From Tribonema minus (taxonomy: Eukaryota > Sar > Xanthophyceae > Tribonematales > Tribonemataceae), in the NCBI GenBank assembly GCA_017506865.1, contig JAFCMP010000519.1:682001-746000 (forward strand): DNA of 64,000 nucleotides. The letters are read 5' to 3'. Shown in pieces: positions 2,169 through 64,000 of this stretch. Every line of letters starts with the position of its first letter. Position 1 is the stretch's first letter. Under the pieces are notes generated by a model. It was not told the origin of the DNA. It did no database searches and saw only the letters and a list, made by a program, of their open reading frames with translations. The position numbers were made by a program, and so were the translations under genes.

Positions 2169-5081
2169 CTAAAGGCGGCTTACGGGACCACGCTTGTCCC
2201 CTTCCCACTTGTAGAACCCCTCGCCGCTCTTCCTGCCGAGCTTGCCGGCATCGACCATGGCACGCAGGCAGTCGGGCACGACGAACGCGGGCTCCGAGGG
2301 GAAGTTGTCCACCCACCCCTGTTCAGGTCGTAAAGAGTGCACGCGAAATCAGCATCTCAAACTTCAACAAGAAGTTGTCCACCCCCACCCTGTAGAGGTC
2401 GTGAAGACTGCATGCAGAATCAGCATCTGAAACTTCAACAAGAAGTTGTCCACCCACCCGCTGTACAGACCGTGAATGACGCGCACAATGCATGCGGTAT
2501 CAACATGTTACACTTCAATAAGCAGGCGCTAAGACAGACGTACTTTTCAATTGCACCAGAAGGCTTGCGCACTACCTGGTCAAACTTTCGCAGCCAGGTA
2601 CCAGCAAAATGGACTCACATGTACCCCTCCCTCACGTAAGCAGCAGTATGGCAGTCACCCGTGGTGCTGCTGAAACAACTACATACATTACATATTACGG
2701 GGCAAAGTGCCCCTGCAGAACAACAGCACATGCATAAGCCAACGCAGTTCACAAGCGAGAGCGGTTCCCAAGTCAAAGCAGTCCCGCAAGGCTTATCTAT
2801 GCTTGTATACAAATCATACTTCAGAATACTTAGAGGTACTACAAACAATGTACATCTGCAGAATGAAGAGGCACGTGTCCAGGCTGGCGTAGTCCCGTGA
2901 GTGCGAGCGGCCCCATGTGTAATTTTTCCATGCTTATACATATCATACTTCAAAGTATGTAGAGGTACTACAAATATAGACATACTACAATATATATATA
3001 CATGTACTTCTATATATACATGTACCGCACCTGCAGGATGAAGAGGCACGTGTCCAGGCCGACATAGTCCGCGAGCGCGAGCGGTCCCATGGGGTGCCCC
3101 GCGCCCAGCTCCATGCTCTTGTCAATGTCCTCCACGGAGGCGTCGCCGCGGTCCACCATGAGCATGGCCTGCGCAAGCGCCGGCACCACTGCGACGACAT
3201 GCACGCAGCACAAGCATGCACGACTTTGACATCCAATCAGGGATCGTTTATAAGGTCACTGTTCGGGCAGAGGTGGTCCTGCCCGTGCATCGCTTTCGAC
3301 AGTAGGTACTTCTGAGTCACGATATGACCAACACGCAGAGGTCGCGTTAGAGCATACTGATTTACCATCCCATGCGGTGTGCTGGACAAGTGAAAGCTGC
3401 AGATGCAACCATGAGCATGGCCTGTGCCAGCGCCGGCACCACTGCGATGTTACGATAGCAGCAGACACGAAGTGTACGTGCACGGCCGAAATAGAGCGCG
3501 CGCACATCAGAGCCAAGTGCTACAGACCGCACCGCTATGATGCGATGGGGGCAATGAGCAGATATGCACACGGACGATGGTCACCATGTACAAATGACGA
3601 CTTGTGTAGGCGGCACGTGATTTAGGCAATGCCGCAGGCGGCATTCATGCACATGAATCATGCAGTCCGTGTGTACGTATAATCACTTACGTAGGCGGTT
3701 CACGATGAACCCCGGCGTGTCCTTGCAGCTGACCGGGTGCTTGCCGATGGAGTTGACGAATGCACGGCATTGCTCAAACACCGCGGGGTCCGTTGCGTCT
3801 GTGCGTACCACCTCCACCAGCTTCATGACCTGAGATGCGCATGCACATGGGACAGGGCAAGTGCACACGGGTGAGGGCTTCAGAAACAGCTTGATCATCC
3901 ATGTTGAAGTGAGCACCACCGCCAGGAACTCCGCTTCGATAAGGTGTGAATCCGTCAAAGTCGAGGCGAGTTGAGTCGCAGCGTATCGTTCTGTGGTGCT
4001 CCACGACTGCACAAGCTCGATGCATGCAATGCACCGCCGTCATGAGCGTCACGCAAGAGCAGGAAACAGTTCAAGCTAGATGGTTTGCCATTGACGAGAC
4101 ATTTTACTTAAGAATGCAATGCTCCTGAGCCTCTCAGGAGATCATATGGGCTCGACAAAGATCAAAGATAGCGACAGCCGCAGTCAGTATACCTGGCAGG
4201 AGGTTTCATTGGCCACCACATGCTGCTTGCGAACAATGTGGTCACTGTCACTGAATGCCTTTGTATGGGTACTGCTCGGATCTCCCAGCGCAACCTAGAG
4301 ATCACCGCCATTTGATATGTGAATGTCGGCGCGACGAAGTCATCTCACTGCATCAAGGATCCACTGGTTGCATTTCTACATCACAATTATAACTGGTATA
4401 CGCGATAAGATAAGATGTGTTAAGTTGCGCCTGCCGCAGCAGATCGGGACGCACCTGCTTCGCTCAGCAATGCATTAGGTGAAAGGTACAGCATATCGGC
4501 AGAATGGCACCACGCAACAATATTTCCAAGCGTAGCAATTTAGTCACCTGCACGGGGTTGAAGAAGTGAAGCCCCACCACGCGATCTGGCCTGCCGCTGG
4601 CTCCCGCCATGTCCGCGATCTTCAGCGAGCTCGTGTTGCTCGCCAGTATGCAGCTCGGCTTCGTCAGCAGGCCCAGTTCCGTGTACAGGGGCAGCTTGAT
4701 GGCAGGGTTCTCCGTGATGGCCTCTATCACCAGATCGCAGTCCGCCAGGCCCGCCCTGTCCGTTGTGTAGGAGATGCGGCTGAGGTAGTCGGCTCCCTGA
4801 GACTCCGCATCTGCCTCCGTGAGCTTGCCACGGGCCACGCTTCTCGACAGCTGCCTCTTGATGGAGGCCTCGATGCGGCCCTTGCCTGCACCGATGGCGT
4901 CCTCTGTGGCCTCCAGACCTACGACTTCGTAGCGCTTGCCGGGAGCCATGGACGCTGCTTGCACTATGCCGTGGCCCATCAGCCCCAGGCCGATCACTCC
5001 CACCTTGTTGATCGATGTGGTCATATGTCTTGTGGCTGAACGGGTGTAGGGCATCACCCTGGCTGCTGCGTTGCGTAGCAT
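2169..5081 (-). CDS. HADH: 3-hydroxyacyl-CoA dehydrogenase, probably mitochondrial (4 exons)
   Basis: Oxidises (S)-3-hydroxyacyl-CoA to 3-ketoacyl-CoA with NAD+, the third step of beta-oxidation; 3-hydroxybutyryl-CoA is a possible substrate. Inferred exons on the minus strand are 5081-4548, 3829-3691, 3188-3031 and 2318-2169, giving 326 aa (family about 310). Residues 1-25 ([20 protein letters not shown]) are Arg-rich without acids and look like a mitochondrial presequence. A Rossmann fold follows with [27 protein letters not shown] and the catalytic-His motif GLHFFNPVQ. The C-terminal domain has [10 protein letters not shown] and [19 protein letters not shown], and the last exon ends in [13 protein letters not shown]. 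Introns 2 and 3 contain echo copies of the exon 3 and exon 4 edges. The gene is divergent from cpn60 with 194 bp between the start codons. The family call is firm; exact borders are by eye. Confidence 0.9.
2300..2465 (-). repeat. Acceptor-side echoes of HADH exon 4 (2 copies)
   Basis: The exon 4 start (acceptor at 2319-2320 on the minus strand, coding GWVDNF) is echoed at about 2346-2391 and 2418-2462. Both echoes carry the same GTGGACAACTTC core with an upstream CAG. The two echoes share flanking sequence (AATCAGCATCT) and have a period of about 72 nt, so the intron part was copied too. Confidence 0.75.
2859..2917 (-). repeat. Donor-side echo of HADH exon 3
   Basis: A diverged copy of the exon 3 end, coding the [19 protein letters not shown] region in the parent (3031-3095). 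It ends in CTGCAG followed by AT instead of the parental GT, so the donor site looks decayed. Confidence 0.7.
3408..3446 (-). repeat. Acceptor-side echo of HADH exon 3
   Basis: Copy of the first about 35 nt of exon 3 ([11 protein letters not shown] in the parent, 3150-3188) together with its CGCAG acceptor. It lies about 258 nt upstream in the intron and has only a few substitutions. Confidence 0.75.
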
Positions 5082-5275
5082 GATTCTGCTATGCAGATCG
5101 AATTGACACTGGTGCTGGCGGGCTGCTGGGAGTCGCAGGTGGCTGCGAGAACGAATGGATTTGCAGATTCTCGAGAGCTCAACTTCAACTTCAACGTCAA
5201 CAACTCAGACTTGATGACTCGAGTTCGCCCTTGCCCGACCGCATGTTGGTTGTACTGCCAGCTTTCAGCGTAGTC
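5082..5275. promoter_or_regulatory. Divergent promoter region between HADH and cpn60
   Basis: The 194-bp interval separates the two start codons of divergently transcribed genes and must hold both promoters and 5' UTRs, unless non-coding exons lie further out. It contains CAACTTCAACTTCAACGTC at 5180-5200, the word family found all over the window. No TATA box was identified. Confidence 0.5.
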
Positions 5276-14182
<8,907 letters not shown>

Positions 14183-16607: not shown

Positions 16608-16795
16608 CTGGCTGCGCAGTCTGTATCTCGGTACTTGGTCTGGAAGCAGTTTGGAATGATTTTTGCCGTTACATTTTTCGCCAACTTCAACAGTATGAAG
16701 TTGGATCTGGCCGCCGATCTTTGGAGTTCTGTCCGATGCACACTCGCTTGCTCATAGTGCTGTGTCTCCACCTCCTTGCTACCACGCTGACAGCC

Positions 16796-19700
16796 ATGAG
16801 TGCAAGGGTAGGGATCGTGACAGGAGCAAACAAGGTGAGGCCCTGAGCTTCAGACTTCGCGCGTTCTACACTCGAATGCTGCCTCGAACCTCGAGCACCT
16901 GTCGCCCTGACGTCTAGTCCATGCTGCGCGTACTGCTGCACTGTTGATAATCATCAAGCGTGCATGTTGTGCCTTGCATGCTCTGCAGGGCATCGGCTTG
17001 GAAATAGCCAGGAAGCTTGGTCGAGAGCAAGGTTGGCTCTGCGTGCTGACGGCGCGTGACGAGGAGAGGGGCCGAAGCGCAGCAGAGAGTCTCCTCAGTG
17101 AAGGAGCGGGGGTCAGATTCAGGCAGCTCGACATCTCGGATCCTGACTCTCGAGAGGTGCGTTTGCAGATATCCTGGTCTCGTTCAAATATTCTAGCCTG
17201 GAGGCAGCATGTTGTGCCTCTGCAAATACTCTAGTCTGGTGCCATCATGATGTGCCTCTGAGTGCCATGTCGTCTGAGAGTAGAAGACGGTTCTGCATGT
17301 GTGCTTGTTGGAGAAACCCACATGGACCTCTGAGATTGAACTGTTGGTGTCGCAAGCTCACAATCACCTACTCTTTGACCCTCCTTGGCTCCTCATCCAT
17401 TCTACCTGCTCTGGCCTGAACCTTCCAAGATTTAACTTTTGGTATCGCAGACGTGCAGTTGGTCACCTATTGATGTTGGCTCCTGATCCTTACATCTACC
17501 TCCGCTCGTGCTCGCGCAGCGCTTTGCCAAGGACGCAGAGCAGGAGTTTACGGCGGGCATCGACGCGCTCGTTAACAATGCGGGGTTCGCCTTCAAGGGA
17601 TCAGGTGATGCAGCGCCATGTGTGCCTTCACGTTTCTGTCATACCCCCCCCCACACTTACACATGCAATGTGCTCTCATGAGTGCATGGTTAACACTGTC
17701 ACGGAGCCCGCAGCACAGCCATGGCCTTCCAGAGCCTTGGCTTGAAGGGTACAGCAATGGGATGTAGCGCATTCTGCATTCGGCAGTGCTGTATATGTCA
17801 ACTGAGCACTACCACCAGGAGCAATGTGCCTTTATGTACTCTACTTCATAAAGGCACATTGCTCCTGGTGGTAGTGCTCAGTTGACATATACAGCACTGC
17901 CGAATGCAGAATGCGCTACATCCCATTGCTGTTGACTACCTTCTTGTCGATAATTAAGGCCCGGGACGGTATTTTGGTATGTTTTTACTGCAGCAACAAT
18001 AAGCACGTCCCCTCTTTTATCGGCTGCATATAATTGCGCCCCCCCCCCCTGTTTTTTCAGCCTCCAGTAGGGCGCAGAATGCATATCGCGATGCTGCTAG
18101 CAGCTAGATAAGGCCTCGCAGTAGCCTATGATGAGCAGAGACAGCAATTGTGGCAGCCGCCTTCGATTTGTCAGACCCACAGATCCTCACAGCAGCTCCA
18201 GGGGGGCTCGCGTGCGTGGAAACTGCGAAAACTTCGATCAACTTCAAGCGTGACCCTGGCAAAATCGGTGACGGCAGAATTCTCCGAGCAATAGCCCATG
18301 CGGCGCAACAGGCACAGGAATCAAGTGCTGAGGGACCTGAGCATGATTTTAATAAGCGTCCCCCCTTTTAATTCGCCTCACAATAAGCACGCCCCCCCCC
18401 CCCCCTTTTTACGCCAGAATCGAAATACCGTCCCGGGGCCTTAATTATCGACAAGACGGTAGTGTCGATGACTCAGGAGGACCGTTTTACAACTGAATCA
18501 GTCTGCCACAGGCACTGCACCTTGGACATCGAAAAACTCCCAACAATGATCTGATGAAATGATGCATGTGCACGCAGTCCCCCGCACTACGGACTTCACA
18601 AAGGCTGACAATCTGCAGGTACTGCCACCCGCCCATATAGAGCAACTGCTTTGCCTCACATGGCTCGTTTGTCCGATGCCTCGATGCGCGTTGGCGCTCT
18701 GTCAGACCCCACGCCCTTTGCGGAGCAGGCCGAGCCCACCATGGACATCAACTTCTTCAGCACGGTGGCCACCACGGAGCGCCTGCTGCCGCTGGTCAAG
18801 CGCAGCCCGCATGGCCGCATTGTGAACGTCGCCAGCATGTCGGGCCACCTGCGCATCGTGCCAGGTCCGTGCGGTCGAAGTGCGTGCGCTGTCTTTGCTT
18901 TGTGGATGACAGAGCGCACCTGCAGATGTCGTGAATGTCGCCAGCATGTCGGGTCACCTGCGTATCGTGCCATGTCCGTGCAGCACGAGGACGGGCGCTG
19001 CCTTTGCCCTGTGTATGACAGAGTGCACCTGCGGATGCTCACCAAATTTGTGAGGTGTGATACCACATGTTTTGCCTCTGCGCGGTTCAGTACACCAAGT
19101 ACTTTGTCGAGGCACTCAACTTGTTCAGGCTCGCGTCGATACGTCCGCGGTCCTGCCAGCTTGCAGCAGCATATGCTTGTGGGCATAGCATGCGAGACAA
19201 GTCGATCTGCTGATGATTCAGGCGCGGTCCCCACAGACAGCTGTAGAATGTCAGCATGTGAAACTCATCGTCGCATTGCACCAGGTCTGCACCGCGCGTA
19301 TCGCTGCAAGTTGAGTGCGATGCGCCCTTGTGAACCATTTACAATGACGCTGCAGCTGGAGAGATGCACTTGCGACTCGAGCCAGCTGAGACACCCGCAA
19401 CGTTGATAACTATTAATTGAGCGATGATGCGTTGCTCACTGCTGTGCCTGACAGACGCGGAGCTTCGCGCCAAGTTTGCCTCTGCGGGCCAACCGGGGGG
19501 GCTGGGGCACGACGAGCTCATGCTGCTGGCGCGGGGGTTTGTGCAGGACGTCAAGGAGGGGAAGCACAAGGAGAAGGGGTGGCCAAACTCGTGCTACGGG
19601 ATGAGGTGAGACGCGCCCTCCCCCCCCCCCCCCCCTCCCCCCCCCCCCCCCCCCCCGCAATCACACAGACCCTGTGGCTGTTGCGCAGAATTCACTGATA

Positions 19701-25545: not shown

Positions 25546-25590
<45 letters not shown>

Positions 25591-35786: not shown

Positions 35787-35883
<97 letters not shown>

Positions 35884-37191: not shown

Positions 37192-37249
37192 TCAGGTGCG
37201 CAGTTCGGGAAAATTCCCCGAAAGTCCACTGGGCGGATACTTAGGTGTG

Positions 37250-37660: not shown

Positions 37661-37673
37661 CAGGTGTGGACCT

Positions 37674-37772: not shown

Positions 37773-38069
37773 TAACCAATCCAGCGCCTTCCTGCGGTCC
37801 GAACAGTGAGCGGTCCACCGCGATGGTGAGCGGTCCCGTGTCTACCAGCGCCATGCTTCACAGCTGCGTCAATACGTGCTGCTAGAAGTGAACGTATACC
37901 GCCAAGTGTAACTGCCGTAACCATCAAAAGCGTGCAAACCTTGAACATTCTCCAGCCACACCACGTTAAATTGCAGCAGTTTTGCTAAACGTGCCCTCAT
38001 GCGATCCCCGCCGTGTGCCACGGTGAGCACCCGCCTGCGCAGTGCGCAGCGCCGCTGGTGCCCTCGCCT

Positions 38070-46185: not shown

Positions 46186-46443
46186 GGTTCGCTGCTCTCT
46201 CCACTTTTTTGAGCACCTCGCGCTTCCAAGGTTCAACTCTGGCACGGTTCCCGGAAAGTTCCACTTGAAGTTCGCTTGAGAAAAAGAAAACAGAGGTTGT
46301 GTGTGTGTTGCTGCAGCTGACCGACAGGGATTCCCACAAAAGTTTCTTCTTGCATCGCAGCGGCAAGCTTCTGAGTCGTTCATCGTGCTTTTCGTCAAAT
46401 TTTACACAAACTGCAAGGCGATCGCTGGGAAGCTCGTGCTGCA
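46186..46443. promoter_or_regulatory. Divergent promoter region UBC9 / choline-transporter-like gene
   Basis: The 258-bp interval between two start codons on opposite strands should contain both promoters and 5' UTRs. It includes GGTTCAACTC and AAGTTCCACTTGAAGTTCGC, again the TTGAAGTT word family. No TATA box was recognised. Confidence 0.5.
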
Positions 46444-49400
46444 ATGAATCCTGTCGACGACAATCTCCAAGATGAGTTCGACTTCGAGGCAGGTGACCTG
46501 ATGCAGCCTTTGGCTCCTGGCCTCAATAATGCCCACAATGACTACCATCATAATCGACAAGGGGCTCCCTATCCTCCCAAACCCAGCGCCGACAGCGCTT
46601 CAACTACGTACAGGGACGCCTTCTTCGCTGTGATATTTGCGCTGCACCTGGCTGTCATACTGGCGCTGGCGATATTTAAAGGCATACCCGCGGTGGCGCA
46701 GGGCGGCATCGATCAAGTCGACGTGGACCCCGCCGGAGGCTCCGAGACACCTGTCAACGACGGCGACAATCCGATACCGCTCGGTGGGTCTGTGCTGCCC
46801 TGGTGCCTGCCTGTATGTGGACTTGTTCTCTGCCATGTGACCAGCGGCAGCAGTTGCTGCTGCATCACTGACAGGCGGCAAGCAAGCAGAGGGAGGATGG
46901 CATGCAGCAGCAGTACTGTCAGGGTTTTGCTAGCCTCGTCAACGTATCGAAGAAGCATGTGCACGCCACACTCCACACACACACCTCTACCACCACACCT
47001 CACGCTGCGCTCTGCTTCCTCGCGCCTGAGCAGTGCTGTCGCTCGGCGTCGTCATGGTCCTCGGCGCGTTCCTGAGCACAGTCTGGGTAAAGGTCCTCGT
47101 GAGCCACGGCGAGAGCGTCGTGCGCTGCACCATACTGTCCACGGTGGCGTGGTTCGTGCTGAGCGCAGTGGCGGCGGCGCTGCTGGGCCAGAGCGGCGGC
47201 GCGGTGGCGCTGCTCGTCCTCGCGGGCATCGCGTACTGGTACTACGTGCTCATCAACAGCCACATCGAGTTTGCGGGCAAGGTGAGAGTGCCTGGGTGGT
47301 GTGGACGCGCCTCCCAATCGCTGACATGTGCTCAAAAACAGCCACATCACTGGTACTACGATGCTCCTCAACAGCCACATCGAGCTTGCGGGCAAGGTGA
47401 GAGCGCCTGGGCGGTATAGGGGTGCGCGTTCACAAACTTCAACTGCTGTTTGGTACTAAGCAACAGCCACATGGGGTTTGCAGGCAAGATCAGCTTTGCA
47501 GCGGGTGGTGGCACTCTCTTTGAGTGCAAACCTCACCTGGTACCATGTGCTCATCACCAGTTACAGTGAGTGGCAGGCAAGGCCCACCAACTTCAGCTCA
47601 ATGTCTAGTGCTTGCTCTTCGATAGCACATTGAGTTTGCGGGCAAGGCGAGGGCACACGCTGCTGAGCGTTGCTGCACACCCTCAGGGGGGAGTCGGGGG
47701 GGGGCAGCAGCACTTCAGCTGAGCATCGACTTCAACTTGTGCATTGCGAACACGCATACGCTATTTGTGTGCTGTATGTGTGTAATGGCTACGATATATC
47801 TGGTGATGGCAATGTTGGGGCAAACAGACCGTAACGCCAGCGCGTGTGCTATGAGGCTGGCGTGCACACCTGTCCACATGTATCGTTCACCTTTGAAAAC
47901 CTTCGTGCGGAACTGCTGTCAAGCACGCATTGGACCTTCGGCCGACGTGCTGGTGGCTGTCCCACTGTATGCCTTGGACTGTAATGATTGTATTCACAGA
48001 TGCTCTCTGAGACAGCAGAAGCACCGCACCACTCACGACTGCCACTTGCCCAGGTACGATGCGTGCGCTGCAACATGTGTTGGTATGCTTACGTGGCGCA
48101 TGCAGGATCTCAGAGCAACGGACCATGTCTGCAGGCACGGAGCCTCAGCAGCATCTTGAAGCGCTCATCTTTCAGCAGCATCTTGAAGCACTCATCTTTT
48201 CATTCTCGCATCGACTTTTCAGCGATGCACAAATATTTGCTGACCTGAAATTGACATTGACGGCGGTCATCCCATTATCAAAGTTTGTCAGCACACTTAC
48301 GGAATCAACCCCTACAAAGCCATGTGCCTCGTTGTGCTTTGTTGTATGCTCTCACCGCGCTTGCAGAACCTGAAGGTGGCGTGCTCAGCGGTGTTGGCGA
48401 TGCCTGGGACAGTTACAGTTGCGGTGACGCTCCTCACAGTACAGGCACTGTGGTGCATGATCTGGGGGCTGGCGATGGTGCGTCCATACTTGAACTTGGT
48501 CACGTTGAAGTACTGGCCGCAGCAGAAAGTTGCAGCGCTCGTGTGTCGCGCTATGGTGCACAATGAATGGTGAATCTACTCCTGCCATGTTGACAGTTAC
48601 AGTTGTGGTGACGCTCCTCGCGGTACAGGCGCTGTGGTGCATGGTCTGGGGGCTGGCGATGGTGCGTCCAAGCTTGAACTTGATGATGTTGAAGTGCTCA
48701 TCGCAGCAGTAAGCTGCACTGCTAGTGTAGGCGCTATGGCGCTGTGGTGCATGATTGCATGTAGCCCTGAACGTGCTGAACTTGAAGTACTATCTGAAGA
48801 AGAAGGCAGTTGCAGTTGCACAGCTCCGTACGCGCTGACCATGCAATTGTACCACTGGTACTCCCGCCAGCAAGAAGCAGCGCGCGCGCGCTTCTGCAGT
48901 GTTTGCAGCATGCGTTGGGCCACTAGGGTGAGAACTAAGTCAGGTTGAGTTTGGCGCAATGCCGTGATGCGCTTCAAGTTCTCGCTGCTTCTCATTCTGC
49001 GGCACATGTGGTGCACGATCTCGGGGCTGACCGTGGCGCATCCATTGATTGCGCACACACATTACTGGAGTATTGCACGTGACATCTTTGAGTTCAGACG
49101 GCGGCGGCCAGCCCGAGAGACCGTGCCGTACAAGCTGATCCAGTCGGCGCCGATGCCACCGTGAGGCGTGTGCGACTGCACACACACACACACCACAAGT
49201 GACAGCCATGATGTCATCGCATGACTCATCAAGGCACGTATGCATGTGCATACATGCATGCGTACGCACAAACGTACATGCACACATATCATACATCCAT
49301 CAATCCACAGCATCATCATGACACGCAACTGTCAAGCCTCCGATACGAGCCCATCTCCCACATGCCCCCCCCCCCCCCCTCCCCCACGCGCCTTCAACCT

Positions 49401-52400
49401 CCCCTCTCCCCCGCCCACCGCAGCTCCCTCATGCCCTTCCCCCCCCCCCCACACACACACCCCTTAACCCCCCCTCCCTCCCCCCCCCCTGCAGCTAGGC
49501 GTAGCCACCAACTTCTCCGCCCCCATCACCGCCGCCGACGGCACGGTCTACGACGCCGACGACTGCACGACGTATGAGACGCAGCGGCCGAACCCCACCT
49601 TCAGCGCCGCGTGCACGGGGTACTACGGCGGGGGCACGTGCTTCAAGTGCGTGTGCGGCGGCGCGACGGTGTACGACGATGCCGAGTGCCGCAGCGAGCG
49701 CGTGAGCGCCGGCGTGTACGCGCTGATGCTGCTCAGGTCAGTGACAGATTCAGTACTTTGTACCTGTACCCAGTGCGTTGGATCATCTGGTCTCATATGA
49801 GTGAGAGGGGGCGCACGGCGTAGAGTGCCGCAGCGAGCGCGTGAGCGCCGGCGTGTACGCGTTGATGCTCCTCAGGTCAGTGACAGATTCAGTACTTTGT
49901 ACCTGTACCCAGTGCGTTGGATCATCTGGTCTCATATGAGTGAGAGGGGGCGCACGGCGTAGAGTGCCGCAACGAGCGCGTGAGCGCCGGCGTGTACGCA
50001 TTGATGCTGCTGAGGTCAGTGACGGACCGAGCTTTTTGTACCTGCACCAGTGCATTGGATTCTCGTCTTGTATGAATTGGGGGGAGGGGGGGGGGGGAGG
50101 GTAATCATGAAGCGCGGAGCGCAGAGTGCCGCAGCGAGCACGTCAGCGCCGGCGTGTACGCGCTGATGCTGCTCAGGTCAGTGTGTCTTACACGGACCGA
50201 TCTTGATCGCAGCGCTCGTTCTTGTGCGGCTGGCCCTTGTCACCTGCGTGCGGGGAGTAAAGTAACGAAGCGCAGGATGCACACTGCCACAGCGAGCGCT
50301 TGAGCGCTTACGCGTTGATGCTCCTAAGGTCAGTGACAGACAGTGCTTTCCCTGCGCCCATAGTCATCTGTACGCGCGCTGCCGCGCACGCACTGATGCC
50401 CCTCAGGTCCATGTGCACCCATCTAAGTGGGCTCCTAGGTCTGTGCGCGACCCTGTAAGTAGGTGAGGTTGGTAGTTGGACGCTCGCTGCGTCACTCGCG
50501 CGAGTGCTGCTTTGCACACGCGTTAATGGTGGTCCTGAGGTCAGACGCTTTCTCGCGTGCGAGGCCGCCGTTCGCCAGCAACATGACTTGGCTGTTGTGC
50601 CTATCGTAGCAATACAAAGCAAGAGTCACGCGTGTACCATCTCTGTACACGTCGCATCATCCACGTGCATCCACTGTACCGCCCGCTACTGCCTCTAGTG
50701 CTTCTGCATGCAACTGAGCAAGCTCCTCTCCTTCAGAACCGCGCCCTGCTGGCGTTACCCTGCCAATCATGGCTCTGACAGCAATGGACTAGTCATCTTC
50801 ACTCCTCTGCATACAGCAGCACTGAGGCATGCGCGCTCCTCACACTCCTCGGCGCAGCCTGATCTGGGGCTGCGGCGTGATCGCCAACATATCGCACTGC
50901 ACGACCGCGGGCGCGGTCGCGGCGTGGTGGTTTGCGGGACGGAATGGTCCCGCCGCTGACGCGTCATCGCCCGTAACTGCCAGCCTGCGAAGGGCCTGTA
51001 CCACATCGCTCGGCACCGGTGAGTCGTCAACTCATTTTGGCGAGTCATTGAGTCCTGTTGGGCAGACCCGTGATTGTCTGCAACCGCCGTTTGGCGCAGG
51101 GCCTGCCGTGCATCGCATGGCGTGAGTGAGTCATTGAGTCATGATGGTGAGAGGGCAAGTCATATGGTGTGGCTGATGCCTCAGTCCTCGAGTCGTGATC
51201 AACCGCCGCGGCGCCGCCCACGGTTGCCAGACTGCGGAGCGCATGCACCGCATCGCTCAGCAGAAGTGAGTCATTGAGTTGACTCGTCGCTCTACAGTGC
51301 TGCATATAACTCACATGTCTGCTCCCTTTCGCTTCGCTCTGCGGTGTGTCTGTTGCTCACGGCCTACATGGCTAGCGGCACAGGTCCCCCAGCACTTGCT
51401 CGCCTGCTTGTTGTGCGCGTACTCGCTGTACACCTCCAAAGTACCTCCGTAGCAAGTGTGCATATCTGTAGCGTGGAATGTTGCGCGTGCAGTGTGTTGC
51501 AGCACCTCTGAAAGGGCGGCTGCCTCCTCGTGACACATGCACTCGCAGCCTCGAAACACAATGCTAGCAGCAGCTGGAACTTCGGGTTAGGGTTAGGGTT
51601 CGGGTTAGCCTCAATGAAGGCACCGTCGCATCTCATTGTCTGAGTCTACTTTACACCGCTTGCATTTTCACTAATCAAGGCACACAGCAGCATCAAGCTC
51701 TGTGAGTATGCCGCGACACAGGCGCGCGCGCTGGGCGCATTTTTCTCTGGCAGGTCATCCACTTGCCACCACTCAGCATCGCCATGGCGCCGTCTCATGA
51801 TGATCGCAGTGCCTGGCAGCGCTGGCGGCAGCAATCGCGCGCCTGCTGGCGGTGGCGGCAGCACCGCAACTGCATCTGCAGAACAGCCACACCCGCCGCC
51901 ACCATGACCTGCCGCAACTCTCACCGGCGGAATCGCTCATCCCCCCTCTCCCCCCCCCCCTTCCCCCTCACCCTCCGCTGTGGCAGTGTGCCTGGCAGCA
52001 CTAGCAGCGGCAGTAGCGCGCCTGCTGGCGGCGGCGGCGACGCGGCTGCGGCGCTCGCGGCGCGGCATGGGCGCGCTGTGGGCGGCGGCGGCGGAGTGCC
52101 TCGCGCACGCCGCCGAGCGCGTGGTGCGCGTGTTCAGCCGCTACGCGTTAGTTCACGCCGCAGTCTACGGCACGACACTGCCGGTGGCGGGCAGCGAGGT
52201 GGGGAGACGCGAAATGTGATACTTGAAGTACGTCAGGTTGAAGTTGAAAGCAACCTCGTGGAGCGCGTGGTGCGCGAGTTCAGCCGCTACGCGCTGGTTC
52301 ACGCCGCCGTGTACGGCACGACGCTGCCAGTCGCGGGCAGCGAGGTGGGTGACACTTGAAGTACGCATATGCGATACTTCAAGTATGTCAGGCAGACGTT

Positions 52401-55400
52401 GAAAGAAACTCGCCGCGGAGCGCGTGGTGCGCGTCTTCAGCCGCTACGTGTTAGTTCACGCCGCAGTCTACGGCACGACACTGCCGGTGGCGGGCAGCGA
52501 GGTGGGGAGACGGGAAATGCGATACTTGAAGTACGTCAGGTTGAAGTTGAAAGCAACCTCGTGGAGCGCGTGGTGCGCGAGTTCAGCCGCTACGCGCTGG
52601 TTCACGCCGCCGTTTACGGCACACCGCTGCCGGTCGCGGGTAGCGAGGTGGGTGGCCGACAGTACACAAAATTTGGTACTTCACGTGTGAAAAATGTGAT
52701 ACTTGAAGCACACCTAAGCTGAAGTTGAAAGAAAAACGCGGTTCTGTGGTTGGATTATGGAAGGCCCGCGTACGGAGACAAGTACATCAAGCTGAAGTTG
52801 GCCGGAAAATGTGGTACTGTGGTCAGATCGTGGAAGGTCCGCGTTCAGAGACGACAGGAGAGGGAGGCTCTCCTTTAAGCTCAACAGAGCGTTTGGTTCC
52901 CTGCGAGGGAGGAACCACGCAGTATAGCAACGCTGTATATGAGTCGGGAAACCTCAAATGCGCTTCTCGATGCTGGCACTGTGGGAAATCAGCACCGGTG
53001 CACGCAAGCGGCGTTTCTCACCTTCATCCACACCTCCCAAGTAGCTGCCACTGTAGAGTCGTGGGCCGAAATGCACATCGTGCTGCCACGAGCATGCGTG
53101 ACAGCACACACAGAGCGTAGGCACCGGGCACGTCACACGCGAGGGATGAAAGCAGCACTGCACCTGGCGGCAGGCTGAGCGCGTCCATGATTAGCAGCTT
53201 CAGCGGATGTCGATAAGCGGGCCTATGCTAGCAAGAGCGCCAGGGTCAGAGGCGAGGCGCACGACGCACCTGACGCTTCATCTTTGGAGAGCGCTGCCGT
53301 GAGCGCGCCACTCATACGCAGTGGTGAGGTGCGCATCGCTAGCGAGGGCGGCATTTTGCGTCCGACGACGCGGAGAAGTAGGTAGGCCAGCAGCAGCGGC
53401 GGCGGCAGCAGCAGCCGCAGCCGCCGCAGCAGCAGAAACAGCTGCACCAATGCAAGAAGCCCAGCAAACAAAGGGCAAGAGAATATACGCAAAACCTCCG
53501 CCACTGCTGGCGTTGCCACCTCCGCCGCCGCTGCTGCCGGCTCCTCCGCTTGGTCAGATGTGCGAACTCGTCCTCGCTGGCGCCGCGTGCCTCACGGCTG
53601 CGCATGGCCGGCGCGCTCACAGGCAGAGCTCTCCGAAGGTGGAGCTTGCACATCTCATGAGCCTCGCCTCTGATTCTGGCCCTCTTGCCGCGCTCCCGTC
53701 CGTCGACACCTGCTGAAACCGCCATTCAGGGACGAACGCAGCCCCCCGCCACTGGCAGTGCTGCTCCCATATTCGTTTTCAAGTGCTTGGCGCCCGCCCC
53801 TGTGTCTGCCATCGAGCATGCTCGTTGCAGCACGATGTGCAGCTTTGCCCACGACTCCGCGGTGGCAGCTTCTAGGCAGGGCGTAATTGAAGAGACAACC
53901 TGCAGCGCGCACGCACGCACGCATGAACTGCCACGGAATAGTGATCGCACAGACCAGAGCATAATCAGGATGGAACGGACAGATGGAGGCCAAATGCTGC
54001 ATTCGGCTCAGATGGTTGGCCTACGGTGATGGCCAGCAAACACACACTCCACAAACTGGAGCATGGGAGCGTTTTGTTGACACAGCCGCTGCAGCTTCGT
54101 CAACCGCGACAGCTTATCCCTGGCCAAAACTGTTCAGAAGTATTGGGGAACCGAGCGATGACCGCTTGCCTTGCGACGTGTGCGCGCCTGCCGCAGTCTA
54201 CCATGCTTGCGGCAGCCAACCTGGCCGCGATGTCAGTGCGCACATCTGCACAGGCCTGGGCGCTATTCCAGTGACGAGTCACCGCTCAACCTTAATCCGA
54301 ACTTGAACCTAGTCTAATTCAATCTTGAATTCCTTGGGTGATTTGAGCTAGAAACCGAGATTGCACATGTGCTTGCGCGGCAACTCGCATCGAGCACTGC
54401 TGCGGTCCATCACCTGCGCCAGCGCTACCAGAAGCGCACGCACACCATCACTTGATTCCCACATGCGCTTGATTCCGCAAGCATCAGCATACAGACTGGC
54501 ACGCGCACGCACACACACGCGCGTGCCTGCAGCTCATCCGCGCGCTGCGCCACCCCCACCCATGCGCACTGCTGCTGCTGCTGCTGCCACTGCCGCTGCC
54601 GCTGCCGCTGCTGCGCAGGTCTGGGCGCTGTTCAAGCGGCGCGGCTGGAGCGCCATCGTCAACGACCAGCTCTGCGACAACGCGCTGGCGCTCGCGTGCG
54701 CCGTCGTCGCGGCGCTGTGCGGCCTCGCCGGCGCCGCCGCGGGCGCGCTGTGCGGCATGAGCGGTCTGCTGACCGCGCTGCTCGCCTCCTTCGGCGTGCT
54801 CATGGGGTACAACCTGGCCGCCGTGGCCGTCAGCGTGGTGCGTCTCCTCTTGCGGTTGGTGCACTTGAAGTTGTGAACGTTTTGCTCACCGCGCTGCTCG
54901 CCTCCTCTGGCGTGCTCATGGCGTACAATCTGGCCGCCATCGCTGCGTCGCCTCTTGCAGGTGATCCTTATGAGTCGAACGTTTGACCACCTAAATGAGT
55001 AGAATGTTTGACCACGCAACTGTTGCCCTTGTTGCACATGAAGTTATGAGCGGCCTGTTCACCGCGCTGCTCGCCTCCTTTGGCGTGCGCATGGGGTACA
55101 ACCTCGCCGCCGTCGCCGTCAGCGTGGTACGTATCGCCTTGCCATTGATGCAGTTGAACACTTGGAGTTGTACGCGCTCCGCTCGCAGTGTTGCTCGCCT
55201 CATTCGGCGTGCTCACGGGGTACAACCTGGCCGCCATTGCTGTCAGCGTGGTGCATCTCCTCTTGCGGTTGTCATTGACGTTCAACGGGCGCTCTGATGC
55301 TTTTTGCCAGCAATCAATGTCCTTGGATCCTTTCGAGACGAAAAGTTGACCACAAGGGATTGTTGCCTTTGCCTTTGTTGCGCTTTGAACTCATGAACAT

Positions 55401-56157
55401 CCTGTTCACCGCGCTCCCGCACCTCTTTCAGCGTGCTCATGGGGCACAGCCTCGCCGCCGTTGCCGTCAGAGCGGTGCATCTCTTCTTGCCGTTGATGTA
55501 CTATCAGTGTTGAAGTGATGCTTTACTGATGCCGAGCGCCAGCCGCATGCTCAGACGAGTAGACGGCAAACAACTTATACCAGCCGCAACTCGAGCTGGC
55601 AATCATGCCTACTATCTGCTCCAATCTTCCTGGCTCTACAGGTTGCAGTTCAGGCACCTGTGCGCTGACGCGCAGGTGTTGTCAATGCACGCGATGAGTT
55701 TTCTAGAGTTAGTTTCATTACTTGCACGCAACCACGTTGACGACACTTGCATGCGAACTCAGCTTGCATATGCTGTGCCTAAACCTAGCCCTAACCCTGA
55801 GCAGCTGGCACGGATCAGCCGTGGCGACATCGCCTGTTTGCTTTGTGCAGGACCGCGTACATGCCTTTACACTTTTTTACCCTGGGTAGGCCACCCCACA
55901 TTTCTGGCCAGCCCCGGTCTGCCCATCTCCGCATGTTGAGATTTGGGGGCACTCACAGCTTGCCTGCTGCTCTGCCGCCGCCGCTGCCGCCGCGCGTGGT
56001 GCAGGTCAGCAGCGCGGTGGCGACGGTGTTCGTCTGCTTTGCGCAGGACCACAACGCCCTCGCTGCCTCGCACCCAGAGCTGTGGCTGGAGCTGATGCAG
56101 GCGTGGCACAAGGCACATGGCCCTACCATGCAGGCCTGCGGCTACTCGCTGTCATGA
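46444..56157 (+). CDS. Choline transporter-like protein (CTL/SLC44 family), 8 exons
   Basis: Polytopic plasma- or organelle-membrane protein; relatives transport choline or related amines. Inferred exons are 46444-46783, 47034-47281, 48367-48477, 49495-49736, 50858-51018, 51987-52198, 54619-54837 and 56005-56157, all in phase, giving 561 aa. The N-terminus (about 57 aa) is soluble and followed by a membrane span (FFAVIFALHLAVILALAIF). A loop and several spans follow (VVMVLGAFLSTVWVKVLV, AVALLVLAGIAYWYYVLI). Exon 4 encodes a Cys-rich loop (DDCTTYETQ, GTCFKCVCGG). Family signatures are SHCTTAGAVAAWWF, SRYALVHAAVYGTTL (the NAYI-IYG region), the long span run GLLTALLASFGVLMGYNLAA, and the terminal span VSSAVATVFVCFAQD. 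Exons 2-7 all have echo copies in their introns. Confidence 0.88.
47326..47647 (+). repeat. Donor-side echoes of CTL exon 2 (4 copies)
   Basis: The exon 2 end (LINSHIEFAGK, donor at 47282) is echoed with ends at about 47396, 47488, 47582 and 47647. What follows the AAG is GTGAGA, ATCAGC, GCCCAC and GCGAGG respectively, so only the nearest echo keeps a normal donor. Confidence 0.85.
48583..49040 (+). repeat. Donor-side echoes of CTL exon 3 (3 copies)
   Basis: The exon 3 end (VTVAVTLLTVQALWCMIWGLAM, donor at 48478) recurs at 48583-48660, about 78 nt long with the same GTGCGTCC donor. Shorter remnants around GCTGTGGTGCATGATTGCAT lie at 48735-48762, and around GTGGTGCACGATCTCGGGGC at about 49008-49040. 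Confidence 0.82.
49370..49490 (+). repeat. Poly-C polypyrimidine tracts before CTL exon 4
   Basis: C-rich stretch broken by T and CACA words, reaching the GCAG acceptor at 49491-49494. It is the same arrangement as in WDR55 intron 2 and carbonyl reductase introns. Confidence 0.8.
49823..50545 (+). repeat. Donor-side echo array of CTL exon 4 (4 clear and 2 residual copies)
   Basis: The exon 4 end (ECRSERVSAGVYALMLLR, 49684-49736) is repeated at 49823-49875, 49962-50014, 50124-50176 and 50283-50338. Shorter remnants end near 50406 and 50540. The first two units repeat with an exact 139-nt period, including 86 nt of intron nearly unchanged. Later units are more diverged and unevenly spaced. All four clear copies keep GTCAGT. 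Confidence 0.9.
51076..51267 (+). repeat. Donor-side echoes of CTL exon 5 (2 copies)
   Basis: The exon 5 end (CTGCGAAGGGCCTGTACCAC, then ATCGCTCGGCACCG and donor GTGAGTC) is echoed at 51076-51122 and 51226-51267. Both are followed by GTGAGTCATTGAGT-like sequence. Similarity is moderate. Confidence 0.65.
51582..51609 (+). repeat. Short interstitial TTAGGG tract
   Basis: GGGTTAGGGTTAGGGTTCGGGT in CTL intron 5, between the echoes of exon 5 and the echo of exon 6. Confidence 0.8.
51807..51862 (+). repeat. Acceptor-side echo of CTL exon 6
   Basis: The start of exon 6 (CLAALAAAVARLLAAAA at 51987) is echoed 178 nt upstream after a CGCAG acceptor, with TGCCTGGCAGCGCTGGCGGC and CGCGCCTGCTGGCGG shared. 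Confidence 0.75.
52258..52647 (+). repeat. Hierarchical (ABAB) echo array of CTL exon 6
   Basis: Three copies of the exon 6 end (RVVRVFSRYALVHAAVYGTT, then GSE) follow the parent, with donors after 52344, 52501 and 52647; the parent ends at 52198. Spacing is 146, 157 and 146. The parent and copy 2 share variants (GTTAGTTCACGCCGCAGTC; donor GTGGGGAGACG), and copies 1 and 3 share others (CTGGTTCACGCCGCCGT; donor GTGGGTG). So a parent-plus-echo block of about 303 nt was itself duplicated. Confidence 0.9.
53043..53872. repeat. Inverted repeat pair in CTL intron 6
   Basis: 53043-53178 is similar in inverted orientation to 53739-53872 (AGTCGTGGGC, GCACATCGTGCTGC and GAGCATGC shared; roughly three quarters identical by eye). 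The arms are separated by about 560 nt of Ala-codon-like GCAGCAGCC repeats. It may be a degraded element with terminal inverted repeats. Confidence 0.6.
54868..55474 (+). repeat. Donor-side echo array of CTL exon 7 (4 copies)
   Basis: The exon 7 end (GLLTALLASFGVLMGYNLAA, then VAVSV and donor GTGCGTCTC) recurs at 54875-54938 (3' end scrambled), 55046-55126, 55176-55250 and 55393-55474. Three keep a GT donor (GTACGT, GTGCAT, GTGCAT). The second copy matches best, so decay is not strictly ordered by distance here. Confidence 0.88.
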
Positions 56158-56485
56158 CCTAGGGCTAGGGCTGCCATGACCTACGGCTAGGGCTTGGCTG
56201 GGGCGCCGGACCGGCGCTTTAATGCAGAGGCGACTCACAACATTTGTGCGGCCGTTTGCCGTCAAGACCAATGCTGAGGGCTTGGCCGACTGTCACGTGA
56301 GATGCCGCACAGGCCAACGGCAGACCTGCAGATGCTCGCTGCCATGACCTAGGATAAGGGCTTGACTGGGGCGTGCAACAGAGTCTGGATGCGGAGAGGT
56401 GGCACAGGGGCTCATGGGGACCTTTGTCTGCACTTACGCGGCGACTTGCCGTTGCGACCTACACTGAGGGCTAGCGCTGGGTGTA
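56152..56485 (+). repeat. Tandem duplication just after the CTL stop codon
   Basis: The stretch from CTGTCATGACCTAGGGCTAG (56148) to TGAGGGCTTGGCC (about 56288) is repeated, more diverged, at 56332-56475. The unit is about 180 nt and lies in the 3' UTR or downstream region, not at a splice site. Confidence 0.65.
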
Positions 56486-61700: not shown

Positions 61701-64000
61701 TCTCTGCCTAGCAGACTCTGAAGCCCAAGCCACACGAAAAGCTCCAAGTGGTGACCTAAAGCATTCGGCATCCACCTGCTGAGCAATGTTGATCTTCTCG
61801 GCGGCGAGCGCATCGCGCAGGCACGCGTCCTTCTCGCCCGCACACTTTAAAAAAAAAGAAAACTTCAAGAGTGTTAACTTCACCTGCTGAGCGATGTTGA
61901 TCCTCTCGGCGGCGAGCGCCTCGCGCAGGTACGCGTCCTTCTCGCCCGCGAACTTCTCGCGCTCCTCCGCGGCGATCGCCGCGCGCAGCCGTGCGTTCTG
62001 CTCCAGCAGGCCGTTGCTCGCGACCAACTCTGCGCGCTCCTCTGCGAGCTTCTCTTCGACGCGCTTCGCCTCTTTTTTCGCTTTGTCGACATCCGCGCGG
62101 CACGCGAGCAGGTCCGCGCGCTGCGACTCGATGGCGTCCAGGAGGCCCGCGAGCTCGCCTTCGAGGGGGGCGCGCGCCGCGTCGCCGTCCGCCAGCTGTT
62201 CAGTACACGGGGCGGCAGGGTCCAACGCATGTGTCAACTTCAACTAGAACTGCAACAGCATGTTACAGGCGTCCGCGCGGCACGCGAGGAGCTCCGCGCG
62301 CTGCGAGTCGATGGTGTCGAGGAGGCCCGCAAGCTCGCCCTTGAGGGGGGCGCGTGCGGCGTCGCCTTCCGCCAGCTGCGCAGCACGGCGCGAGCATGTA
62401 TGGTGGTACATAAAGTGTTGACATTTAGATTTATTTATTCTATTGTTAAGCTCCAACTAGAGAGACGACACAATGCACAAGGGCCTCGATGGGCGTCGAG
62501 CAGACCGGTGAGCTCGCCCTCGAGGGGGGGGCGCGCGGCGTCACCCTCTGCCAGCTGCGCGGCAACGCAGTAGAGTCCAACACTCAAGCATCGATTTCAA
62601 CTAGAACTGCAACAGATGTTATGTTACAGGCGTCCAGGAGGCCAGCGAGCGGGCCTTCGAGGGGCGTGCACGCCGTGTCGCCGTCCGCCAGCTGCGTGGC
62701 GTAGCGCGGTGCGCGCGTACACGGTGTGCCAGGGTTTTCTCTTCATAGACTTCAATTCAAAGTCAACTTCACTATATTCAATAAAAAGGCGCAGCAGCAG
62801 CAGCAGCAGACTTTACAGGGACCTCAATGGCGTCAAGGAGGCTGTCGAGTTCAATTTTACACGTGCTGCGCCGCCCTCCGCAGCTACTCCCGGCGCAGCG
62901 CATACACGCTGTCTATTGCCATTAAACTTCAACTCAAAAGCTCAAGTTCCAGCCACCAAAGCCAGCCAGCATGGGTGTTGAAGCTGCGGCGCGCTCTGCA
63001 TCTGCTCAGGAAAGATCAAGTGCACACTAGTCTGGTGACCAGGTCGTCTTGGTGCGATGTGGAAGCATTTGCTTGTTTTCCACATCAGGTTTTGCAATTC
63101 GCGGAGCTGACTTTGGCCACAATGAAATCATCCGGACGCTTGAAGCACCAGCTGCAACTCAACGGCCGGCCAGCTAGAATTCCTCCAACGTCAAGTTCAA
63201 GCTCCGCATGTACAGCTCGCCTGACTGCAGCCGCGTCATACGCATACCTACTTACCTTGCCCAGTACATGCCGCAGCTCATCTGATCGTACTGAGAGTGC
63301 GCTGCTTGGTACCACTCCAGCAAACTCTGAAGCGCGTCCTATGTATACTACATACCTTGCCCTCAGCTCACCTGATCGCACTGTGCCTGGGCCGCTGATA
63401 CCTGCCCACGAAATGCTGCAGCGCGCCCTTGAGCATGTGTACGTACATACAGACATATGTACACAAATACATACTTCCAGCTCAGCTCACCTGCATGCCA
63501 ATATGCCAACATGACTCAGCTCACCGGCACACAGCGCAACTCAGCTCACCTGATCATACTGCGCCTGCGCCGCCTGATAGCGGTCCATGGAGGCCTGCAG
63601 CGCTCTTTGAGCATACATACACTTTGAGCATACAGACATACATAAATACGTACATCAACTCACCTGCATACTAACACGCATGAGTTCACCTGATTGTACT
63701 GCGCCTGGGCCGCCTGACACCGGTCCATGGAGGCCTGCAGCCCGTCCTTGAGGAGCGTACATACATACATACATACGTACATACATACCCCAGCTCGCCT
63801 GCATCAACATACCTCGCTCACCTGGTCGTACTGATGTCAGTCCGTAGAGCTCTGCGGCACCTGCTACACCTGCGTGCATACATCGCTTAGTACATGCCTC
63901 AGCTCACCTGATCATACTGCGCCTGTGCCGCTTGGTACCGGTCCATGGAGGCCTGCAGCGCGTCCTTTAGCCTGTCGTACTGCGTGCGCAGCGCCTTCTG
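58796..64000 (-). CDS. Coiled-coil protein, 5' part beyond the window (at least 4 exons seen)
   Basis: Exons recognised on the minus strand are 64000-63908 (continuing outside), 62195-61884, 60344-60186 and 59221-58796, all phase 0, giving 276 residues in the window. All are rich in Glu, Ala, Arg, Gln and Leu with heptad spacing, for example RLKDALQASMDRYQAAQAQY, RVEEKLAEERAELVASNGLL, ELSFELKEARRECEERAARQ and GLLRSALGDVLHLQARCAAL. The last exon contains an Ala run and a Gly/Ser-rich stretch before the final helix, and ends EADARLA-stop. This is a long coiled coil of the kind found in cytoskeletal, centrosomal or vesicle-tethering proteins; no specific family can be named from this part. Missed small exons are possible. 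Echo arrays surround every exon. Confidence 0.7.
59356..59394. repeat. Interstitial CCCTAA tract
   Basis: CCTAATCCTAACCCTAATCC and continuing CCTAACC units, the reverse complement of a TTAGGG-like repeat. It lies in the intron before the last exon of the coiled-coil gene. Confidence 0.85.
59775..60130 (-). repeat. Donor-side echoes of coiled-coil exon at 60186-60344 (3 copies)
   Basis: The exon end (LQAEIEDLTNQ, donor GTACGT) is echoed at about 60103-60125, 59947-59990 and 59783-59826. Each has GAAGTTGAAGATCTC and AAATGAG or AAACCAG before a G-starting junction. The farthest echo keeps CAG|GTACTG, while the middle ones have GAG|GTACT and GAG|GAAC. Confidence 0.75.
60977..61028 (+). repeat. 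Interstitial (TTAGGG)8-like tract
   Basis: About eight GGGTTA units with one substitution, the longest telomere-like tract in the window. It interrupts one copy (60887-61095) of a segment that is also present at 59560-59740 without the tract. Confidence 0.95.
61425..61843 (-). repeat. Donor-side echoes of coiled-coil exon at 61884-62195 (3 copies)
   Basis: The exon end (AGEKDAYLREALAAERINIA, then QQ and donor) recurs at 61780-61843, about 64 nt with GTGGAT as donor. Shorter copies are at 61650-61690 and 61427-61460, both with CTCAGCAG|GTGAGG. Confidence 0.85.
62271..62705 (-). repeat. Acceptor-side echoes of coiled-coil exon at 61884-62195 (3 copies)
   Basis: The exon start (LADGDAARAPLEGELAGLLD) is echoed at 62271-62378, 62500-62562 and 62637-62697. 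The nearest copy is over 105 nt long and reaches SQRAELLACRAD; the others stop near ELAG. Copies are preceded by CAG acceptors. TTCAACTAGAACTGCAACAG is shared in their flanks. Confidence 0.88.
63275..63860 (-). repeat. Donor-side echo array of the coiled-coil exon at the right edge (5 copies)
   Basis: The exon end (DALQASMDRYQAAQAQYDQ, donor GTGAGC at 63907) recurs at about 63822-63860, 63690-63756, 63548-63606, 63371-63440 and 63277-63343. Spacing is mostly 80-170 nt. Four keep CAG|GTGARC-like donors; the farthest has ATGAGC. ATACATACATAC-type intron sequence is repeated between them. Confidence 0.85.

What the first reader, a model, noticed from the sequence alone, without database searches (positions are those of the whole stretch)
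2169..64000. Pervasive exon-edge echoes: serial decaying copies of exon/intron junctions inside introns
Seen directly: at least seven genes of unrelated function (HADH, cpn60, carbonyl reductase, kinase, WDR55, CTL, coiled-coil) have introns filled with 1-6 partial copies of the adjacent exon edge, including the splice site. Upstream copies always hold acceptor plus exon start; downstream copies always hold exon end plus donor. In most arrays length and identity fall with distance. Known tandem exon duplication copies whole exons and is rare per gene, so this does not fit it. Inference: a genome-wide process repeatedly duplicates DNA around junctions (slippage, template switching or break repair), or uses junction DNA or spliced/unspliced RNA as template. 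The copies could act as splice decoys.
Basis: partly seen in the sequence, partly recalled or inferred. Interest (0 to 1): 0.93.

Follow-up and report, generated by a model that had tools for sequence, protein, structure and literature searches.

The report
Decaying exon-edge copies inside algal introns
In this stretch of a yellow-green alga's genome, most introns of the genes that could be modelled carry extra, decaying partial copies of the neighbouring exon's edge and its splice site, apparently left by repeated small local DNA duplications, and these spare copies seem to have misled the public model of one gene.

Summary
The window is Tribonema minus (Xanthophyceae): its HADH product matches the NCBI T. 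minus protein at 100%. In three genes with protein-supported models (cpn60, HADH, choline transporter CTL; 17 introns), 45 exon-like stretches lie in introns, all in direct orientation and next to their own exon. Upstream copies hold the exon start, downstream copies the exon end; 0 of 90 non-adjacent and 0 of 216 cross-gene pairs match. 14 of 17 introns and 19 of 34 junctions are affected. Identity falls with distance on average; length does not.
Best explanation: repeated small local duplications of genomic DNA across junctions. Splicing keeps the site next to the complete exon, so the spare edge becomes intron and decays; this explains the polarity. Intron-side similarity in 33 of 45 copies speaks against spliced mRNA as template. 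Transcript-derived proteins skip the copies; the NCBI CTL model uses six as exons. Junction-spanning families (19) outnumber intron-only ones (2) more than uniform duplication predicts, so exon-edge targeting is possible but unproven. Single junction-spanning duplications are known; this density was not found in ten searches.

The parts
2172..5024 (-). HADH gene, 4 coding exons (4548-5024, 3691-3829, 3031-3188, 2172-2318)
   Evidence: spliced alignment of NCBI T. minus protein P0121
2301..2525 (-). acceptor-side copies of HADH exon 4 start, unit about 71 bp
   Evidence: (TRF)
2793..2974 (-). donor-side copy of HADH exon 3 end (2856-2917, 87%) with its intron part
3408..3447 (-). acceptor-side copy of HADH exon 3 start (34 bp exon part, 94%, plus 6 nt intron)
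5447..14179 (+). cpn60 gene, 8 coding exons (5447-5461, 5805-6040, 8423-8660, 9558-9698, 10830-11129, 11995-12201, 13025-13201, 13847-14179), all introns GT-AG
   Evidence: spliced alignment of transcript-derived P0001, 99% identical
7746..8348 (+). four acceptor-side copies of cpn60 exon 3 start (82-98% identity)
8732..8833 (+). donor-side copy of cpn60 exon 3 end with about 57 nt of intron
9810..10162 (+). two donor-side copies of cpn60 exon 4 end
10420..10751 (+). two acceptor-side copies of cpn60 exon 5 start (one holds only exon bases 49-96)
11178..11937 (+). five donor-side copies of cpn60 exon 5 end, period about 166 bp (77.5-96% identity)
12248..12671 (+). three donor-side copies of cpn60 exon 6 end
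12701..12976 (+). three acceptor-side copies of cpn60 exon 7 start
13259..13457 (+). two old donor-side copies of cpn60 exon 7 end (76-77%)
13527..13602 (+). acceptor-side copy of cpn60 exon 8 start
18931..19037 (+). donor-side copy of a carbonyl-reductase (Pfam adh_short) exon end; source 18822-18928
   Evidence: junction read by eye
20939..21091 (+). donor-side copies (81 bp period) near a probable exon end of the same gene; source starts 20858
   Evidence: junction read by eye, this exon not confirmed by Pfam
24026..24079 (+). donor-side copy of a protein-kinase exon end (94.5%); source 23839-23893
   Evidence: junction read by eye
29106..29510 (+). donor-side copies of a WDR55 exon end, period about 112 bp; real exon ends at 29038
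   Evidence: junction read by eye
30194..30735 (+). acceptor-side copies of the next WDR55 exon start; real exon starts at 30864
   Evidence: junction read by eye
46444..56154 (+). choline transporter-like (CTL) gene, 8 coding exons (46444-46783, 47034-47281, 48367-48477, 49495-49736, 50858-51018, 51987-52198, 54619-54837, 56005-56154)
   Evidence: spliced alignment of transcript-derived P0241
47349..47654 (+). four donor-side copies of CTL exon 2 end
48592..49029 (+). two donor-side copies of CTL exon 3 end; part of the first is an exon in the NCBI model
49823..50328 (+). four donor-side copies of CTL exon 4 end; parts of two are exons in the NCBI model
51225..51262 (+). donor-side copy of CTL exon 5 end
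51809..51859 (+). acceptor-side copy of CTL exon 6 start
52261..52647 (+). three donor-side copies of CTL exon 6 end, with a 303-bp higher-order repeat (96%); all three are in exons of the NCBI model
54874..55498 (+). four donor-side copies of CTL exon 7 end
   Evidence: junctions read by eye
63263..63833 (-). donor-side copies of a coiled-coil exon end; source about 63892-64000
   Evidence: junction read by eye

Best explanation
The copies come from small (mostly about 70-250 bp) local, direct, tandem or near-tandem duplications of genomic DNA that straddle an exon-intron junction. After each event the mRNA still uses the splice site that adjoins the complete exon, so the spare exon edge with its splice site is absorbed into the intron, stops being selected and decays. 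Repeated rounds at one junction build arrays in which farther copies tend to be older. The polarity follows from topology plus selection: duplications wholly inside an exon, or containing a whole exon, change the protein and are lost, while those across an edge are tolerated. Shown here: the copies, their orientation, adjacency, polarity and intron sides, and that the transcript-derived proteins of two genes skip them. Inferred: the DNA-level duplication step, the order of events, and any duplication rate that is higher at exon edges than inside introns.
For: 140 direct against 1 inverted local matches and 0 in three shuffles (15 of the 140 are one microsatellite). 45 of 45 copies are direct, adjacent and of the right polarity; 0 of 306 other exon-intron pairs match. 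Several arrays are periodic (166, 139, 112, 146/303 bp). The intron side is copied too: 33 of 45 copies and 16 of 19 families by local alignment; anchored at the junction, 34 of 45 copies and 16 of 19 families score above all 40 shuffles (counted). Intron-side divergence over the 40 nt at the junction is compatible with twice the exon-side divergence in 45 of 45 copies, a deliberately lenient test. Copies behave as non-coding: 12 of 13 indels in exon parts shift the frame, and splice dinucleotides are kept in 32 of 45 against 79% expected. Where two or more copies share a base that the exon lacks, 21 of 24 such changes are synonymous, as expected if copies record earlier states of a constrained exon. 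P0001 and P0241, which by their names come from transcript assemblies, match models that skip every copy.
Against: Singleton differences also lean to third codon positions: 53 of 104, and 51 of 104 are synonymous, against 27% for unconstrained change. My own arithmetic, allowing synonymous change in the exon lineage at the same rate, expects about 42%, so a mild excess remains. Several copies are not strictly tandem: 14 to about 210 nt of unmatched sequence separate them from the source (8718-8731, 48560-48591, 23894-24025, 3195-3407). 12 of 45 copies have no significant intron side, and some of the 33 intron-side alignments are not collinear with the junction. Random duplication plus selection alone predicts more intron-only events than the 2 seen in the three genes. 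No reads or second assembly were examined.
Confidence: 0.8

Rival explanations
1. The duplication process itself is targeted to exon edges (for example by polymerase stalling, R-loops or exon-positioned nucleosomes), so that junctions are duplicated far more often than other DNA.
For: 19 junction-spanning families against 2 intron-only ones in the three genes. Uniform placement on back-estimated ancestral introns predicts 37% spanning (54% if intron-only events are seen half as well); P(>=19 of 21) is 6.4e-7 to 4.5e-4 for sensitivities from 1 to 0.5. Only two local repeats, of 38 and 39 bp, lie in 21.65 kb of chosen control sequence. Some intron interiors, such as 6041-7735, are free of local repeats.
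Against: Three genes only. Ancestral intron lengths, the two intron-only calls and the sensitivity (8 of 19 families recovered strictly by intron similarity, about 12 loosely, counted by hand) are estimates; at sensitivity 0.3 P is 0.012, at 0.2 it is 0.07. I chose the control stretches after seeing the repeat map, and they leave out other unassigned repeats: outside the three genes 19 local matches (at 20.2-20.5, 21.5-22.0, 24.3, 37.2-37.7, 43.6, 56.1-56.4, 58.6-58.8 and 59.6-61.1 kb) were not assigned to exon edges. The share of the unit lying in the exon does not differ significantly from random (KS p 0.12).
Confidence: 0.3
2. Unspliced pre-mRNA or splicing intermediates are copied back into the gene by reverse transcription at nearby breaks.
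For: Copies are always in the sense direction and hold an exon edge, most with some intron.
Against: Regular tandem periods and a higher-order 303-bp repeat; no copy in other genes, 0 of 216 pairs. DNA duplication explains sense direction equally well.
Confidence: 0.05
3. The copies are alternative (cassette or mutually exclusive) exons that are translated in some transcripts.
For: The NCBI T. minus CTL model P0242 includes six copies as exons; third-position excess among exon-copy differences.
Against: Transcript-derived P0241 and P0001 lack them. Copies hold only part of an exon, 12 of 13 indels shift the frame, and splice dinucleotides are lost at about the neutral rate. The third-position excess is largely expected from exon-lineage synonymous change.
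Confidence: 0.07
4. Assembly artefact: collapsed or mis-joined repeats in the assembly.
For: Only one assembly was seen; no reads were available.
Against: Exon parts of the copies are 74.6-100% identical to the exon (median 89.7%; the 100% is an 18-bp match) and differ from each other, with different units in different genes; such divergence is not produced by assembly error.
Confidence: 0.02

Closest known systems
Tandem duplication across an intron-exon boundary in a potato RdRp gene (PMC4974935; passages seen, including parts of the abstract)
   Same: A duplicated segment holding the 3' part of an intron and the 5' part of the next exon, made by local tandem duplication.
   Different: One event, in which a cryptic donor made a new intron. 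Here many events at donors as well as acceptors, multi-copy arrays, and no new intron: the spare edge is absorbed into the old intron.
Rogers-type intron gain by tandem duplication of an AGGT-bearing exon segment (described in passages of PMC4974935 and, for Drosophila, PMC2891723)
   Same: Local tandem duplication rescued by splicing so that the protein is unchanged.
   Different: There the duplicated unit is exonic and creates an intron. Here the unit spans an existing junction and lengthens an existing intron.
Tandem exon duplication / mutually exclusive exons (recalled)
   Same: Local direct duplication of exon-bearing DNA.
   Different: Whole exons with both splice sites are copied there; here only one edge, with one splice site, is copied.
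Introner elements (recalled; named as a model in a passage of PMC4974935)
   Same: Many introns of a genome changed by one recurrent process.
   Different: Introners share sequence between genes; here each array resembles only its own exon.

Membership tests
Junction-spanning local tandem duplication (as in the potato RdRp case) | Copy holds part of the intron and part of the exon across a splice site | tested here: met
   33 of 45 copies (16 of 19 families) have a significantly similar intron side, 34 of 45 when anchored at the junction; the rest show the exon side only
Junction-spanning local tandem duplication (as in the potato RdRp case) | Direct orientation, next to the source | tested here: met
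   45 of 45 plus-strand and in an adjacent intron; some copies have unmatched spacers
Junction-spanning local tandem duplication (as in the potato RdRp case) | An unduplicated state in relatives, showing the event | not testable with these tools
   no genomic DNA of a relative could be reached; the genome search unanswered
Rogers-type intron gain | The duplicated unit is exonic and a new intron arises | tested here: not met
   units contain existing splice junctions and the copies lie in existing introns of the protein-supported models
Tandem exon duplication | Complete exon with both splice sites is copied | tested here: not met
   no copy in 45 covers a whole exon; longest exon part 118 bp of a 300-bp exon
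Introner elements | Same element in introns of unrelated genes | tested here: inconclusive
   against: 0 of 216 cross-gene exon-intron pairs, and in the whole-window self-comparison 4 of 76 direct and 4 of 8 inverted matches are far apart. Introns of different genes were not compared separately at higher sensitivity
Copies made from spliced mRNA | Exon-exon junctions, no intron sequence | tested here: not met
   intron sides are present in 33 of 45; no copy of a non-adjacent exon in any intron

The most novel reading that the evidence does not exclude
Exon-intron junctions are themselves hot spots of DNA duplication in this alga: a replication, repair or transcription-linked process keeps copying the 70-250 bp around splice sites, growing introns out of exon edges and leaving a layered record of earlier exon states, while duplication elsewhere is much rarer.
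Probability: 0.28. Interest if true: 0.85.

Novelty: new variant of a known kind. Interest (0 to 1): 0.62.

Why it matters
If it holds across the genome, it is a concrete mutational route by which introns grow from neighbouring exons, and each array is a series of near-identical competing splice sites, a natural test of how the spliceosome picks one site among several. The copies may also preserve past synonymous states of their exons. In practice, gene prediction in such genomes can be misled: the public T. minus CTL protein contains six copy-derived segments that the transcript-derived protein lacks.

Tried and rejected
Green-alga origin (Haematococcus, from GC content and TTAGGG repeats) was my first guess and was wrong: protein searches gave stramenopile relatives and a 100% T. 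minus match. Coding constraint on the copies: third-position excess looked like it, but most of it fits synonymous change in the exon lineage recorded by copies; a small residue is unexplained. Gene conversion or copying confined to exons, suggested by short ungapped intron sides, was not needed once intron sides were aligned with gaps, although that test is lenient. Palindrome-driven breakpoints: the motif ACTTCAA/TTGAAGT lies within 60 nt of 14 of 45 copy boundaries, against 11% of random intron windows, but the copies in one array are not independent (8 of 19 families); left as a lead. Breakpoint microhomology was only looked at by eye from the self-alignments and was not decidable.

Literature: ten searches showed in their listings no description of exon-edge copy arrays in introns, in Tribonema or elsewhere. 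The library holds open-licence papers only, and the T. minus genome paper (recalled) was not in the listings. Papers of which I saw passages: PMC6330051 and PMC7617258 (Haematococcus, not relevant in the end), PMC2891723 and PMC4974935. All others only as search listings.
Full report
Source. The window belongs to Tribonema minus, a yellow-green alga. A draft HADH protein read from it matches the NCBI T. minus protein P0121 at 100%, and a T. minus CTL protein from a contig of the same length (779,345 bases) matches the CTL gene. Two proteins from a transcript collection, P0001 (cpn60, 99%) and P0241 (CTL), come from an unnamed but close alga; that their TRINITY names mean transcript assemblies is recalled.

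Gene models. I aligned P0001, P0121 and P0241 to the window with a spliced aligner written for this. This gave 8 coding exons for cpn60, 4 for HADH and 8 for CTL: 17 introns and 34 junctions.

The copies. Comparing all 20 exons with introns gave 45 matches. All are in direct orientation. All lie in the intron before or after their own exon: the 34 adjacent pairs hold all 45, while 90 non-adjacent same-gene pairs and 216 cross-gene pairs hold none. The 13 matches in upstream introns carry exon-start sequence (12 from within 4 nt of the start, one from base 49) and the 32 in downstream introns carry the exon end (30 within 4 nt, all within 15 nt). They fall into 19 families, 7 at acceptors and 12 at donors, in 14 of 17 introns. 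The copied exon part is 18-118 bp; no whole exon is copied. In the window as a whole there are 140 direct and 1 inverted local matches, and none in three shuffles. Of the 140, 73 lie in the three genes, 33 in the arrays read by eye in other genes, 15 are one CAG microsatellite and 19 are unassigned.

What was copied. The intron side of the junction is also similar in 33 of 45 copies and 16 of 19 families, or 34 of 45 copies when the alignment is anchored at the junction. The template was therefore genomic DNA or unspliced RNA rather than mRNA. Several arrays are regular (166 bp x5 in cpn60 intron 5; 139 bp in CTL intron 4; 146/303 bp in CTL intron 6), as tandem duplication makes them. Some copies stand apart: the kinase copy is 187 bp from its source, with about 130 nt of unmatched sequence between, and the copy of HADH exon 3 start has about 210 nt between. 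Over the 40 nt next to the junction, intron-side divergence never exceeds what twice the exon-side divergence allows, a lenient test.

Fate of the copies. Of 13 indels in the exon parts, 12 are not multiples of three. GT is kept in 23 of 32 and AG in 9 of 13 copies, together 71%, against 79% expected from the copies' identity. Differences shared by two or more copies are nearly all synonymous (21 of 24), and singletons are half synonymous (51 of 104) against 27% for unconstrained change. The first fits copies that record older states of a constrained exon; the second is slightly above the roughly 42% I calculate if the exon also gathers synonymous changes. Identity falls with distance in arrays of three or more (mean rho -0.55, p 0.005), although the nearest copy is the most similar in only 5 of 12 arrays; length does not fall.

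Use in splicing. P0001 and P0241 fit models that skip every copy. The NCBI model of CTL, P0242 (666 aa), aligns to the window with 16 exons by my aligner. Six of them (48629-48661, 49834-49875, 50135-50176, 52237-52344, 52421-52501, 52540-52647) end exactly at the donor of a copy (compare), and none of the six is in P0241. I take this as an annotation error, but I cannot exclude rare isoforms.

Polarity. A duplication across an acceptor gives: intron, spare exon start, intron tail, complete exon. Across a donor it gives: complete exon, intron start, spare exon end, rest of intron. If the protein is to stay unchanged, the acceptor next to the complete exon, or the donor that ends it, must be used.

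Is the junction special? In the three genes I find 19 junction families and 2 intron-only duplications (13624/13765 and 52706/52780, judged by hand; both lie close to an array). Placing units of the observed sizes at random on genes with introns shortened to their estimated earlier length gives 37% spanning among tolerated events. With intron-only events detected half as well it is 54%, and the chance of 19 or more of 21 is 4.5e-4; at a sensitivity of 0.3 it is 0.012 and at 0.2 it is 0.07. With exons masked, 8 of 19 families are still found strictly by intron similarity and about 12 if mixed matches count (hand count). Six stretches in which I had no gene model (21.65 kb, chosen after I had seen the repeat map, and likely to hold some exons) contain two local repeats, of 38 and 39 bp. 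Outside these stretches and the named arrays there are 17 more unassigned local matches in about seven places, the largest group at 59.6-61.1 kb; without gene models I cannot say whether they are exon edges. This suggests an excess at exon edges within genes, but from one window and three genes it is not proof.

Limits.

Placement. Single tandem duplications that cross a splice junction are known (potato RdRp, PMC4974935), as is intron gain from duplicated exon segments (PMC4974935, PMC2891723). Dense, two-sided, multi-copy arrays that feed existing introns were not seen in the listings of the ten literature searches. I file this as a new variant of a known kind.

Noticed in passing
window 1-64000; e.g. 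7332, 9709, 11139, 11305, 52223: The 8-mer AACTTCAA/TTGAAGTT is the most over-represented non-simple 8-mer (41 seen, 4.9 expected, both strands). ACTTCAA/TTGAAGT occurs at 2.46 per kb in introns, 0.92 in control stretches and 0.24 in exons, sometimes as a near-palindrome just inside a donor.
   Followed up: partly
introns 3830-4547, 5462-5804, 46784-47033: The three introns without any exon-edge copy are the first coding introns of HADH, cpn60 and CTL; 1 in 680 by chance, noticed after the fact.
   Followed up: no
CTL gene, P0242 against P0241: The public T. minus choline transporter model contains six copy-derived exons and two further exons not in the transcript-derived protein, and lacks its last exon.
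   Followed up: partly
53033-53880: An 848-bp imperfect inverted repeat (68% self-complementary) inside CTL intron 6, possibly a decayed mobile element.
   Followed up: no
17751-17932: A 182-bp near-perfect palindrome (96.7%) in a stretch without a gene model.
   Followed up: no
8674-8846, 59361-59393, 60967-61028: Interstitial TTAGGG/ACCCTA repeats, one inside cpn60 intron 3 and copied with it.
   Followed up: no
56130-56172 and 56320-56362: A 43-bp copy spanning the CTL coding end lies downstream of the stop codon: an exon edge that is not a splice junction.
   Followed up: no
59559-61132: A cluster of eight local direct matches (29-196 bp, 71-95%) in a stretch without a gene model; not assigned to an exon edge.
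   Followed up: no
9013-9173 and 40912-41070; 21289-21358: A dispersed repeat (up to about 160 bp, 80-87% identity, both strands) shared by distant places.
   Followed up: no
cpn60 exon 5 and exon 7: At two sites where the window protein differs from P0001 (window C, P0001 R; window T, P0001 A), intronic copies carry the P0001 residue, so the copies may preserve an earlier state of the exon.
   Followed up: partly
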